From NCBI RefSeq assembly GCF_900105305.1, contig NZ_LT629765.1, forward strand, positions 2,542,001 through 2,606,000: 64,000 nucleotides of DNA, in the 5' to 3' direction. A program made the position numbers and the translations under genes. The stretch comes from Corynebacterium timonense (lineage in GTDB: Bacteria > Actinomycetota > Actinomycetes > Mycobacteriales > Mycobacteriaceae). Below are positions 2,595 through 23,558 of this stretch, one piece after another; the stretch's first letter is position 1; every line of letters starts with the position of its first letter. The notes beneath the pieces are model-generated. The model did not search any database. It saw nothing but the letters and a program-made list of their open reading frames with translations, and was not told the origin of the DNA.

Positions 2595-4301
2595 GTGAGT
2601 AGCGTAAACGATTCTTCGGGTCAGAGGCCGGGTCAGGGGCAGGGCGGCGGCCGCGCGGGGCGGATCGCCCTCGGCGTCGTCGTGGGCGTGTTCGCAGTAG
2701 CGCTCACCGTCTACCTCGCGGACCTTGCGATGAACCGCGGCACCGTGCCCCGCGGCACGACGGTGGGGGGCGTGTCCATCGGGGGCATGACTCAGGACGA
2801 GGCGGTGGCGGAGCTCGAGAGCGAGCTCGGCTCGTCCGCGCAGGAACCCGTCACGGTGCGGGCGGCGGAGCTGACCGCCGAGGTCGTCCCGGCGACGGCG
2901 GGTCTGGGCATCGACTGGCGCGCCACGGTCGAGGCCGCCGGCGTGGAGTCGGCCAACCCCTTCAGCAGGCTGGCGAACCTGTTTCGCACCCGCGAGATCG
3001 ACGTGGTGCCCACCGTCGACGACTCCCAGCTGAGTCCCGAGCTGGACCGCGTACGCGGCGAGCTGCACGCCGACCCGGTCGACGGCTCCATCGCGATCGA
3101 GGGGGGCGAGGCGAAGGTCACGGACCCGGTTCTTGGCCAGGAGGTCGAGCGCGCCGAGCTGAAGGAGCGCCTGACCACCGGTTGGCTCGACCCGGAGGGC
3201 GTCGAGGTGGAGCCGGAGGTGCTGCAGCCGGCGATCAACGAGGACGTGATCTCCGCCGCGATGGACGGCCCCGTCAAGGAGGCGCTGTCCGGCCCGCTGA
3301 CGCTGCGCGGGCGCGACGACGTTGACGCCGTGGTGGCCACGGAACAGATCGGCGAGGTGGTGCAGTTCCCGAACGTCGAGGGGCGCATCGAGCCCGAGGT
3401 CAACCGGGAGCGCGCCGCCGAGATCTTCGGCGAGCAGCTCGCTCCGACCGTGACCGAGATGAAAAACGCCCGCGTGCTCCCCGGCGGCGGCGTCGAGCCG
3501 AGCCAGGACGGCATCGTGGTGGACTGGGAAGTGACTCTCGACGGCGTCGAGGAACGCCTCCTCGGCCCGGCCGAGCGCACGTGGGACGCGGAGTACAAGG
3601 AGGTGGCGGCCGACTTCACCACCGAGGAGGCCGAGAATGCCACCTTCGACGAGGTCGCCGGCAGCTTCACCACGAGCGGCTTCAACGCGGCTTCGGGCAC
3701 GAACATCCGGCTCGTGGCCAGCACGGTCAACGGCGCGATTGTGAACCCGGGCGAGACGTTCTCGCTGAACGGCTACACGGGCCCGCGCGGCACGGCGCAG
3801 GGCTACGTCGAGTCGGGCATCATCCTCGACGGGCGCGCGGACACGGCCGTGGGCGGCGGCATCTCTCAGTTTGCTACGACGCTGTTCAACGCCGCCTACT
3901 TCGCAGGCATGACCGATGTGGCCAGCACGCCGCACTCCTATTACATCTCCCGCTACCCGGCGGGCCGCGAGGCGACGGTGTACGAGGGCGCGATTGACCT
4001 GCAGTTCCGCAACGATTCGCCCTACCCGGTGAAGATCACCGCCAGCGTCGGCGCCAACGACCTCACGGTGAGCCTGATGGGCGTGAAGACGTACAACGTG
4101 GAGTCCATCAACGGCGGCCGGTGGGCCTACACCCAGCCGCGGCAGCAGACGGTGACCGGCCCCGGCTGTGCGCCGTCGTCAGGCGCGCCGGGCTTTACGA
4201 CGTCCGACACCCGCATCGTCTCCGACCTCGCAGGCAAGGAGCTCTCCCGCGAGACCACGACGACGGTCTACGACCCGCAGCCGATTATCACCTGCGGGTA
4301 G
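2595..4301 (+). CDS. VanW family protein with YoaR-like peptidoglycan-binding domain
   Basis: The protein has 568 residues. It has a short basic N-terminus, one transmembrane segment around residues 20-40 and a long extracellular part. The middle resembles the YoaR-like putative peptidoglycan-binding domain (PG_binding_4). The C-terminal third is a VanW domain, recognisable by NPGETFSLNGYTGPR and the GGGISQFATTLFNAAYFAG stretch near 3850-3912. The exact role of VanW proteins is unknown; they occur at the surface of Gram-positive bacteria. GTG 2595 is chosen because TACCCT (2582-2587) sits 7 nt upstream as a leaderless -10 element, and upstream codons run into the end of the LpqI-like gene. 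Confidence 0.85.
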   Translation: MSSVNDSSGQRPGQGQGGGRAGRIALGVVVGVFAVALTVYLADLAMNRGTVPRGTTVGGVSIGGMTQDEAVAELESELGSSAQEPVTVRAAELTAEVVPATAGLGIDWRATVEAAGVESANPFSRLANLFRTREIDVVPTVDDSQLSPELDRVRGELHADPVDGSIAIEGGEAKVTDPVLGQEVERAELKERLTTGWLDPEGVEVEPEVLQPAINEDVISAAMDGPVKEALSGPLTLRGRDDVDAVVATEQIGEVVQFPNVEGRIEPEVNRERAAEIFGEQLAPTVTEMKNARVLPGGGVEPSQDGIVVDWEVTLDGVEERLLGPAERTWDAEYKEVAADFTTEEAENATFDEVAGSFTTSGFNAASGTNIRLVASTVNGAIVNPGETFSLNGYTGPRGTAQGYVESGIILDGRADTAVGGGISQFATTLFNAAYFAGMTDVASTPHSYYISRYPAGREATVYEGAIDLQFRNDSPYPVKITASVGANDLTVSLMGVKTYNVESINGGRWAYTQPRQQTVTGPGCAPSSGAPGFTTSDTRIVSDLAGKELSRETTTTVYDPQPIITCG

Positions 4302-5760: not shown

Positions 5761-5778
5761 CGCCCCCGCGCTCCGCCG

Positions 5779-5805
5779 CCGCACCCCCGTGGGGTGCGGT
5801 TTTTG
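5779..5805 (+). terminator. Rho-independent terminator after the YjiH-type gene
   Basis: CCGCACCCC (5779-5787) and GGGGTGCGG (5791-5799) form a 9-bp stem with a 3-nt loop, followed by a T-rich run (GTTTTTGTT would start directly after the stem). Confidence 0.9.
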
Positions 5806-5823: not shown

Positions 5824-5852
5824 TTGCAATAGACAAAGCGGTCTAATAGGAT
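5824..5852 (+). promoter_or_regulatory. Sigma-A-type promoter with an McbR box filling the spacer
   Basis: TTGCAA (5824-5829) and TAGGAT (5847-5852) have a 17-nt spacer. The spacer contains TAGACAAAGCGGTCTA (5830-5845), an exact match to the corynebacterial McbR operator TAGAC-N6-GTCTA. McbR is the TetR-family repressor of methionine and cysteine genes in C. glutamicum and is released by S-adenosylhomocysteine. A repressor bound here would cover both promoter elements. The predicted transcript start is near 5859, exactly at the beginning of the riboswitch-like leader. Confidence 0.82.
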
Positions 5853-5860
5853 CGGGGGCG

Positions 5861-5971
5861 CGATCACGAAGCCCGACGTTCACAGCCTCCCGGCTCGTCG
5901 GCTGGCAACCGCGCTCATCGCGCACGGTGCCCCCGGGAGAAGATCGGCCGGCGTCGGCAACCGCGCGCCGG
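5861..5971 (+). promoter_or_regulatory. SAM-IV-like riboswitch in the leader of an unknown gene
   Basis: The leader holds a P1 stem CGATC (5861-5865) / GATCG (5942-5946), the SAM-I/SAM-IV core box CTGGCAACC (5902-5910), the partner GGTGC (5926-5930) and CCCCGGGAGAAGATC just before the closing of P1. The ACGAAG sequence after the first P1 strand and the downstream hairpin CCGGCG (5948-5953) / CGCCGG (5966-5971) also fit the SAM-IV architecture common in actinobacteria. The Shine-Dalgarno of the next gene is only 14 nt further on, which would suit translational control. Class assignment is by eye; a SAM-I/IV variant is possible. Confidence 0.68.
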
Positions 5972-5996
5972 AAGTGCGATTCACCAAGGAGCAGCC

Positions 5997-6566
5997 ATGT
6001 CCCTCGACATGTCGACTTTTCTGTCCTCTGACCACCCCAACGACTGGACTCCCGCCACGTTCAACAATCTGAACGTGGTGACCCTGACTTTCTCCGCCGG
6101 CGGAGAAAGCATCGTGCGGGAGTTCGCTTCCCCGCTGGCCGCGCTCTCGCTCATGCGCGAAATGGGATTCGACTTCGAGTTCTCGCCGTCGCGCAACGCG
6201 GTGCGCACAAGGGCCGGTGACGTCATCCTCCTGCCCACGCTTGACAAACCCCGTGTCCGTGTGGAGCCGAGCAAGTGCACCCTCGTGGCGAAGGGGCACA
6301 AGCCGCACTGGGGCCCAGCGTTGCGGGCGGCGAACGGCCCAGCCGACGCCTGGGCGCCCGTGGTCGTGCTCAGCGTCGAGGGGACCAAGGTGACTCTCGC
6401 CACCCCTGACGGGGAGATGGTCATCTACGACCACGGGGGGCAGTGGATGGAGGAGCGGCTCGAATACAACGCTGAGTGGGGCATGCTGCGCGGGCCGAGG
6501 GACGACTCGGGTCGACGTACCGCCTTCTGGATCTCCCGCACCCCCATTACGCCGTGCACCGCCTAA
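5997..6566 (+). CDS. Unknown protein under predicted McbR and SAM-riboswitch control
   Basis: A soluble protein of 189 residues that I do not recognise. No signal peptide or membrane segment is visible. The first part (NLNVVTLTFSAGGESIVREF) looks like beta strands; later come several charged turns, a VVVLSVEGTKVTLATPDG stretch and few cysteines (one near residue 98, one near the C-terminus). The start has AAGGAG (5986-5991) five nt before ATG. The promoter with an McbR box and the SAM-IV-like leader predict expression when SAM and SAH are low, so a role in methionine, SAM or sulfur metabolism is likely by inference only. It converges with, and overlaps by 4 bp, the CPBP protease gene. Confidence 0.8.
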   Translation: MSLDMSTFLSSDHPNDWTPATFNNLNVVTLTFSAGGESIVREFASPLAALSLMREMGFDFEFSPSRNAVRTRAGDVILLPTLDKPRVRVEPSKCTLVAKGHKPHWGPALRAANGPADAWAPVVVLSVEGTKVTLATPDGEMVIYDHGGQWMEERLEYNAEWGMLRGPRDDSGRRTAFWISRTPITPCTA

Positions 6567-23542: not shown

Positions 23543-23558
23543 TAGACAGAGCAGTCTG
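23543..23558. promoter_or_regulatory. McbR-type operator between fprA and cysI
   Basis: TAGACAGAGCAGTCTG matches TAGAC-N6-GTCTA at 9 of 10 defined positions. It lies 54 bp upstream of the fprA start and 228 bp upstream of cysI. McbR represses sulfur assimilation genes in C. glutamicum (known for the regulator); binding here is inferred. Confidence 0.75.

What the first reader, a model, noticed from the sequence alone, without database searches (positions are those of the whole stretch)
5824..6566. Unknown gene with two stacked SAM-pathway controls: McbR box inside the promoter and a SAM-IV-like riboswitch
Seen: TTGCAA-N17-TAGGAT in which the 17-bp spacer contains an exact TAGAC-N6-GTCTA palindrome, followed at the predicted start of transcription by a leader with P1 (CGATC/GATCG), CTGGCAACC, GGTGC and a 3' hairpin. 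Known: McbR answers to SAH, and SAM-IV riboswitches answer to SAM. Inference: the gene is off unless both metabolites are low, so its 189-residue product probably belongs to methionine/SAM metabolism. Corynebacterial methionine genes are usually described as controlled by McbR; having a SAM riboswitch on top is unusual and points to a new family member of the pathway.
Basis: partly seen in the sequence, partly recalled or inferred. Interest (0 to 1): 0.82.

Follow-up and report, generated by a model that had tools for sequence, protein, structure and literature searches.

The report
Gene gated by SAM and SAH
A small gene of unknown function in a Corynebacterium sits behind two stacked switches, a repressor site linked to SAH and a SAM-sensing RNA, so it probably turns on when the cell's SAM-to-SAH ratio falls; the same pairing recurs in related genomes.

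Summary
An exact McbR box (5830-5845) fills the 17-bp promoter spacer and is followed by a SAM-IV riboswitch (67.4 bits, gathering score 38) whose 3' pseudoknot strand ends 5 nt before the Shine-Dalgarno sequence. The pairing is conserved: 60 of 70 SAM-IV sites, in 67 of 242 held genomes of the genus, have an McbR box within 80 nt upstream, against 0 of 16 sites outside the genus. The product belongs to a family without a convincing match in Pfam, NCBIfam or PHROGs; 57 of 69 genus leaders precede a member, and 7 of 12 homologues outside the genus also sit behind SAM-IV. The C. glutamicum member is cg1478, whose SAM-IV leader is in print; I found no print of its McbR box, but the main McbR papers were not available.

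SAH inactivates McbR (PMC2580772, passages), so the gene should be on when SAH is high and SAM low, not when both are low. The biochemical role is unknown; the context fits methionine-cycle stress (a strong MetE match in 59 of 59 carrier genomes, 110 of 142 others). New variant of a known kind.

The parts
5824..5829 (+). -35 hexamer TTGCAA (inferred)
   Evidence: sequence; similar layout at metK in this genome (L113) and at the 35 genus sites with the box 31-32 nt before the aptamer; not called by the generic scan
5830..5845 (+). McbR-type operator TAGACAAAGCGGTCTA filling the promoter spacer
   Evidence: exact TAGAC-N6-GTCTA; box with at most 1 mismatch at 60 of 70 genus SAM-IV sites
5847..5852 (+). 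-10 hexamer TAGGAT (inferred)
5860..5860 (+). approximate start of transcription (transferred, not measured here)
   Evidence: C. glutamicum RNAseq 5' end lies 2 nt before the aptamer match (PMC3890552 Table 2)
5862..5982 (+). SAM-IV riboswitch aptamer; P1 5862-5865 with 5942-5945; core GGCAACC 5904-5910 and GGTGCC 5926-5931
   Evidence: RF00634, 67.4 bits, gathering 38; coordinates
5887..5893 (+). pseudoknot PK-1, 5' strand (CTCCCGG), pairs with 5933-5939 (CCGGGAG)
   Evidence: element named as in PMC6890682 (passages)
5917..5923 (+). pseudoknot PK-2, 5' strand (ATCGCGC), pairs with 5974-5980 (GTGCGAT)
   Evidence: loop and tail of the same leader pair better than swapped ones (0 of 1000 shuffles)
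5986..5991 (+). Shine-Dalgarno AAGGAG, 5 nt after the PK-2 strand
   Evidence: aptamer-to-start distance 8-18 nt at 58 of 69 sites
5997..6566 (+). ORF P0001, 189 aa, cg1478-type family; two halves of similar strand order predicted
6252..6563 (+). C-terminal core domain with C94, G100, H101, H146, C187
   Evidence: invariant in alignments A1, A2, A3, A4

Best explanation
This is the local member of the cg1478 family, a small protein made only when two checks are passed. Check 1, transcription: McbR bound between -35 and -10 blocks the promoter until SAH accumulates and pulls McbR off (McbR behaviour reported for C. glutamicum by others; the site here shown by sequence; binding here inferred). 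Check 2, translation: SAM bound to the SAM-IV leader holds the fold closed; its 3' pseudoknot strand ends 5 nt before the Shine-Dalgarno and keeps ribosomes off (structure shown by sequence and covariation; blocking inferred). The output is therefore an AND gate for high SAH and low SAM, that is a falling SAM/SAH ratio. The product is most likely a methionine-cycle stress protein with a C-H-H-C metal or thiol site on a small beta-rich domain; whether it is an enzyme, a metal carrier or a regulator of the pathway is not known.
For: SAM-IV match far above its cut-off. Exact McbR box in the promoter spacer; the same arrangement with an exact box before metK in this genome, and boxes near cysK, metQ, fpr2/cysI (window 23543) and a cg2810-like symporter, so the regulon looks in place (gene names from reading protein starts). 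Box plus riboswitch at 60 of 70 genus sites against 0.16% of random 80-mers and 0 of 16 SAM-IV sites outside the genus. No terminator-like site between aptamer and ORF; start codon 8-18 nt after the aptamer at 58 of 69 sites; PK-2 covariation, own mean 13.75, shuffled mean 12.69, sd 0.33, largest 13.73 of 1000. SAH inactivates McbR (PMC2580772). Family linked to SAM-IV: all 22 genomes found with P0001 alone are among the 58 SAM-IV genomes of the 201; 45 of 59 profile-positive genomes, Fisher p 7e-21 without correction for relatedness; 7 of 12 homologue loci outside the genus. C. glutamicum cg1478 mRNA rose by log2 4.89 at pH 6, where SAH and the McbR regulon also rose (PMC2807442). All 59 family genomes have a strong MetE match, vs 110 of 142 others.
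Against: No binding or expression data for this genome, and the McbR protein itself was not looked for. 10 of 70 sites have no box with at most 1 mismatch (8 of 57 family leaders, 2 of 12 others), so the gate is not universal. 12 of 69 leaders precede other proteins. The list quoted in PMC2807442 names LexA, not McbR, for cg1478. The pH 6 data are mRNA and cannot show the riboswitch step; SAM was not measured there. Metal binding is inferred from conservation alone, in rows that I chose; the model is weak around C94-H104 (block means 46 and 56). The MetE association may reflect ancestry.
Confidence: 0.62

Rival explanations
1. Simple redundant shut-off: both controls report plenty of methionine, and the gene is on when SAM and SAH are both low.
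For: Both elements are present; SAM and SAH often move together (general knowledge).
Against: The McbR behaviour stated in print is the opposite: SAH inactivates the repressor.
Confidence: 0.12
2. The riboswitch acts by transcription attenuation (terminator or Rho) rather than at the ribosome binding site.
For: Attenuation is common among SAM riboswitches (general knowledge); Rho-dependent control cannot be seen in sequence.
Against: No terminator-like site between the aptamer and the ORF and little room for one at 58 of 69 sites.
Confidence: 0.12
3. The McbR box is a relic or is read by another regulator; the riboswitch alone controls the gene.
For: 10 of 70 genus sites lack the box; four genomes with closely similar products (G041, G062, G119, G159) have strong riboswitches and no box; the McbR protein was not identified here.
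Against: Box kept exactly or with one mismatch at 60 of 70 sites; one genome (G029) keeps an exact box before the gene although no aptamer was found there.
Confidence: 0.12
4. The product is not a methionine-cycle protein but a stress or defence-type small protein that uses low SAM/SAH as an alarm.
For: No conserved metabolic neighbour seen; fast divergence; patchy presence, 59 of 201 genomes; other unknown proteins behind the same leader; broken or short copies in G020, G021 and G498.
Against: All 59 carrier genomes have a strong MetE match; linkage to SAM-IV also outside the genus, where other SAM-IV leaders precede MetY-like genes (read from protein starts).
Confidence: 0.3

Closest known systems
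cg1478 of Corynebacterium glutamicum ATCC 13032 with its SAM-IV leader (PMC3890552 Table 2; PMC4046766; passages)
   Same: Same riboswitch class directly upstream of a homologous gene. The held sequence G505/L192 has a SAM-IV of 117 nt and a TPP riboswitch of 111 nt, 794 nt apart, as in the paper, so I take it as that locus; its promoter spacer holds TAGACCAAGCTGTCTG, one mismatch from the McbR box.
   Different: The cg1478 product in L192 (153 aa) has the core domain and a C-terminal tail; the window protein (189 aa) has an extra N-terminal half instead. In the passages I read no paper lists cg1478 as an McbR target.
SAM-IV riboswitches of other Mycobacteriales, and the solved aptamer (PMC6890682, passages)
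   Same: P1, P2, P3, P5 and both pseudoknots; PMC4239095 (passage) names SAM-IV as a regulator of metXY in Actinomycetales, and MetY-like genes follow it here in L108 and L110.
   Different: 0 of 16 sites outside the genus that I checked had an McbR box within 80 nt. In Corynebacterium 64 of 67 positive genomes have a single SAM-IV.
McbR regulon promoters, e.g. metK in this genome
   Same: Box between -35 and -10, as described for ssuR and cg3372 (PMC2580772 passage).

Membership tests
SAM-IV riboswitch (RF00634) | Covariance-model score above the gathering cut-off, full-length match | tested here: met
   67.4 bits vs 38, positions 1-116 of 116
SAM-IV riboswitch (RF00634) | Two pseudoknots, PK-1 and PK-2, the latter with the 3' tail | tested here: met
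   7-bp pairings at 5887-5893/5933-5939 and 5917-5923/5974-5980; PK-2 covariation over 42 distinct leaders
SAM-IV riboswitch (RF00634) | Binds SAM and changes gene expression | not testable with these tools
   needs in-line probing and reporter assays
McbR operator | TAGAC-N6-GTCTA palindrome overlapping the promoter (consensus taken from the finding and from memory) | tested here: met
   exact at 5830-5845, between the inferred -35 and -10
McbR operator | Same box at known sulphur-regulon genes of the same genome | tested here: met
   metK and cysK exact, metQ, fpr2/cysI and others with one mismatch (genes named from protein starts)
McbR operator | McbR protein encoded and binding | not tested
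   repressor gene not searched for; binding needs a gel shift
cg1478 protein family | Sequence relationship to the single-domain members behind SAM-IV, among them the C. glutamicum type | tested here: met
   profile-profile link of the two sub-groups, probability 98.7; a near-identical relative of the C. glutamicum protein (G156) is a row of A3
cg1478 protein family | C, GH, H, C | tested here: met
   C94, G100, H101, H146, C187 in P0001; 20 of 20 rows of A3, rows picked by me from 59 leader genes
OB-fold / small barrel proteins | Significant structural match | tested here: inconclusive

The most novel reading that the evidence does not exclude
A genuine methylation-ratio sensor: one gene whose DNA operator reads SAH and whose mRNA leader reads SAM, so that output follows the SAM/SAH ratio; the product is the first member of a new metal-site family that protects or restarts the methionine cycle (for example by serving the zinc enzyme MetE).
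Probability: 0.3. Interest if true: 0.78.

Novelty: new variant of a known kind. Interest (0 to 1): 0.58.

Why it matters
SAM riboswitches and SAH-responsive repressors are each well known. A conserved pairing of the two on one gene, with opposite signs for the substrate and the product of methylation, would be a natural AND gate for methylation potential, and it can be tested in a common laboratory organism. It also gives an orphan family (cg1478) a strong functional context. The box was absent at the 16 sites checked outside the genus, which suggests that McbR control was laid over an older SAM-IV switch in Corynebacterium, where most positive genomes keep that switch at one gene only (64 of 67).

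Tried and rejected

Neighbours: no conserved operon partner was seen by reading 12 loci outside the genus. In the window the gene lies between a Gate-domain membrane protein and a CPBP-family gene, near tRNA-Gly and a dcd-like gene; a dcd-like frame also follows in L085 and L089. CysI presence did not discriminate (58 of 59 carriers vs 128 of 142 others).

MetE count: 172 of 201 genomes match at E up to 0.001; I dropped three weak ones (G083, G111, G193) and counted the rest, all below 1e-150; only 102 pass the curated cut-off. Nine genomes without a match were not listed; they were found by subtraction and none is a carrier.

Circularity: 20 of the 57 'family' leader genes are rows (cut to the core) of A3, the profile that counts them; the P0001-only search and the 12 loci outside the genus do not share that fault. 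Five of those 12 loci had no SAM-IV. Of the 14 genus genomes with the protein but no SAM-IV, 8 show one directly upstream at 28.7-39.1 bits (one above 38), 3 show the core by eye only (G028, G127, G160), and 3 have none, a 3' remnant by eye, or a box only (G008, G116, G029). One of the 70 counted sites (G115, 36.4 bits) is under the cut-off. L085-L089 come from contigs of the same lengths as those of G177, G158, G038, G002 and G129, so they are not additional species.

Print: 'cg1478' with 'glutamicum' gave 3 papers, 'SAM-IV' with 'McbR' 2, 'SAM-IV' with Corynebacterium and methionine 6. I read passages of PMC3890552, PMC4046766, PMC2580772, PMC2807442, PMC4239095 and PMC6890682; none of these passages joins McbR and SAM-IV on one gene. 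Other papers of the listings were not opened. Rey et al. 2003 and 2005, Brune et al. 2011 and Weinberg et al. 2008 were not read, so a prior report there is not excluded.

Full report
What was checked. The promoter-like pair TTGCAA-N17-TAGGAT (5824-5829, 5847-5852) has an exact TAGAC-N6-GTCTA palindrome in its spacer (5830-5845). Nine bases after TAGGAT begins a full-length SAM-IV match, 5862-5982, 67.4 bits against a gathering score of 38. It is the only SAM-IV found in the 2.63-Mb genome. The start codon of a 189-codon frame (P0001) follows 14 nt after the aptamer, with AAGGAG at 5986-5991.

Is the pairing more than chance? In a sample of 201 genomes of the genus, 58 have SAM-IV; in all 242 held, 67 have it at E up to 0.001, 66 above the cut-off, with 70 sites. 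I took all 70 sites. 60 have an McbR box with at most one mismatch within 80 nt upstream, 26 of them exact. Among 2,569 random 80-mers of the first 59 loci the rate was 0.16%. Two placements dominate: 31-32 nt before the aptamer, between -35 and -10 as in the window (35 sites), and 37-39 nt before it, where the box takes the -35 region (22 sites). Family leaders without a box: 8 of 57 (G041, G062, G119, G159, G045, G088, G103, G195); leaders of other genes without one: 2 of 12. Outside the genus none of 16 SAM-IV sites that I checked has a box (best 2 mismatches). The pairing thus looks like a feature of Corynebacterium laid over an older riboswitch.

McbR in this genome. A pattern search found 36 places with at most one mismatch, fewer than the 61 for the reversed control pattern, so one-mismatch hits alone prove little. 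Four are exact: the window site, one before metK with the same -35/box/-10 layout, one beside cysK, and one (2149556) inside a long open frame that is probably chance. Of the one-mismatch places I examined those near metQ, a cg2810-like symporter, an ABC lipoprotein, a glutamine-amidotransferase-like gene and a ROK-type regulator, and the one at window 23543 between fpr2-like and cysI-like genes. These were picked because they looked promising, and the genes were named by reading protein starts; a sub-cut-off CysI match lies at G000:C1:2566401. The repressor gene was not searched for.

The logic. PMC2580772 (passages) states that absence of SAH leads to repression by active McbR and presence of SAH to its inactivation; PMC2807442 (passages) says so for acid-grown cells. 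Together with the usual off-switch behaviour of SAM riboswitches (general knowledge), the gene should open when SAH is high and SAM is low. That is a falling SAM/SAH ratio.

How the RNA step may work. No terminator-like site lies between aptamer and ORF; the two found are at 5778-5800, before the promoter. Over the genus the start codon lies 8-18 nt after the aptamer at 58 of 69 sites, which leaves room for little but a ribosome binding site. The tail strand of PK-2 (5974-5980) ends 5 nt before AAGGAG. In 50 leaders with a clear core (42 distinct loop and tail pairs; 9 of 59 dropped because the core pattern was not matched), loop and tail of the same leader pair better than swapped ones: mean score 13.75 vs 12.69, sd 0.33, largest of 1000 shuffles 13.73. 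The shuffle does not correct for relatedness. Blocking of translation by SAM is thus the most likely platform; it is inferred. PMC6890682 reports no large change of the aptamer fold on SAM binding (passages), so the switch may be one of stability rather than shape. Pseudoknot names follow that paper.

The product. P0001 alone finds homologues in 22 of 201 genomes, all 22 among the SAM-IV genomes. A wider profile, A3 (20 rows that I picked from the leader genes, with five invariant columns C, G, H, H, C), finds 59 of 201; 45 of these are among the 58 SAM-IV genomes (Fisher p 7e-21, not corrected for ancestry). Of the other 14, 8 have a weak SAM-IV directly upstream, 3 have a core visible by eye, and 12 have an McbR-type box within 330 nt upstream of the match. 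In the order, 12 of 297 genomes other than the window's have a match, and in 7 of these 12 loci SAM-IV lies just upstream on the same strand. Other SAM-IV sites there stand before MetY-like and aminotransferase-like genes (read from protein starts). So this is a SAM-IV-linked family of the order. 12 of 69 genus leaders precede other proteins, among them seven similar 117- to 156-aa proteins; the one tested has no Pfam match.

C. glutamicum. G505 carries a SAM-IV of 117 nt with a TPP riboswitch of 111 nt on the other strand, 794 nt away: the same lengths and spacing as published for cg1478 and thiC (PMC3890552 Table 2), so L192 is taken as that locus, although its bit score differs (82.1 here, 70.47 in the paper, which used an older Rfam). 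Its box is TAGACCAAGCTGTCTG, one mismatch, 32 nt before the aptamer. Its 153-aa product has the C..GH..H..C set. In PMC2807442 Table 2 the cg1478 mRNA rises by log2 4.89 at pH 6, the largest value among the rows shown to me, next to many McbR genes; the regulator named there is LexA. Peptide values were near nothing, which would fit a second, translational check, but is weak evidence.

Structure and role. AlphaFold gives two halves of similar strand order, beta-beta-beta-alpha-beta-beta-beta, with the C/H set in the second half and low confidence around C94-H104. A model of the second half alone (pLDDT 76.7, pTM 0.66) and the full model both give only noise-level structural matches, many of them OB-type barrels. 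P0001 has only two cysteines, and both are invariant in A1 to A4. All 59 family genomes have a strong MetE match, vs 110 of 142 others (p 8e-6, ancestry not corrected); CysI does not separate them. I commit to a methionine-cycle stress protein with a metal or thiol site, and say plainly that the chemistry is unknown.

Novelty. The parts are known; SAM-IV at cg1478 is in print. The conserved McbR-box/SAM-IV pair, its reading as a SAM/SAH-ratio gate, and the family with its invariant residues were not found in the listings and passages that I saw, with the main McbR papers unread.

Noticed in passing
window 23543-23558: A one-mismatch McbR box between a ferredoxin-NADP reductase-like gene and a cysI-like gene: the sulphate-reduction cluster is in the same window.
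   Followed up: partly
L007 (G009), between aptamer and ORF: Downstream of the SAM-IV leader lies a second promoter-like stretch with another McbR-type box (CAGACAAAGCGGTCTA), so one transcript may skip the riboswitch.
   Followed up: no
G020, G021, G498 (L012, L011, L194): Family genes with an in-frame stop or cut short, behind intact-looking leaders: the gene seems to be lost in some lineages.
   Followed up: partly
L074, L075, L076, L078, L080 (117 aa), L079, L081 (156 aa): A different small unknown protein stands behind the same kind of McbR box plus SAM-IV leader in seven genomes.
   Followed up: partly
L068 (G162), L077 (G010): Longer unknown proteins (336 and 375 aa) behind box plus SAM-IV; G010 has another SAM-IV before a usual family member.
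   Followed up: partly
L174 (G029) and L175 (G116): Natural single-control states: a box without an aptamer, and (by eye) only the 3' part of the aptamer left before the gene.
   Followed up: no
L155 (G473) 2959-3071 -: A second SAM-IV about 1 kb upstream of the family gene, before an unrelated 208-aa frame, in a genome of another genus.
   Followed up: no
L086 5534-6136, L087 5579-6181: Diverged tandem paralogues directly after the main gene; they keep C, GH, H and C.
   Followed up: partly
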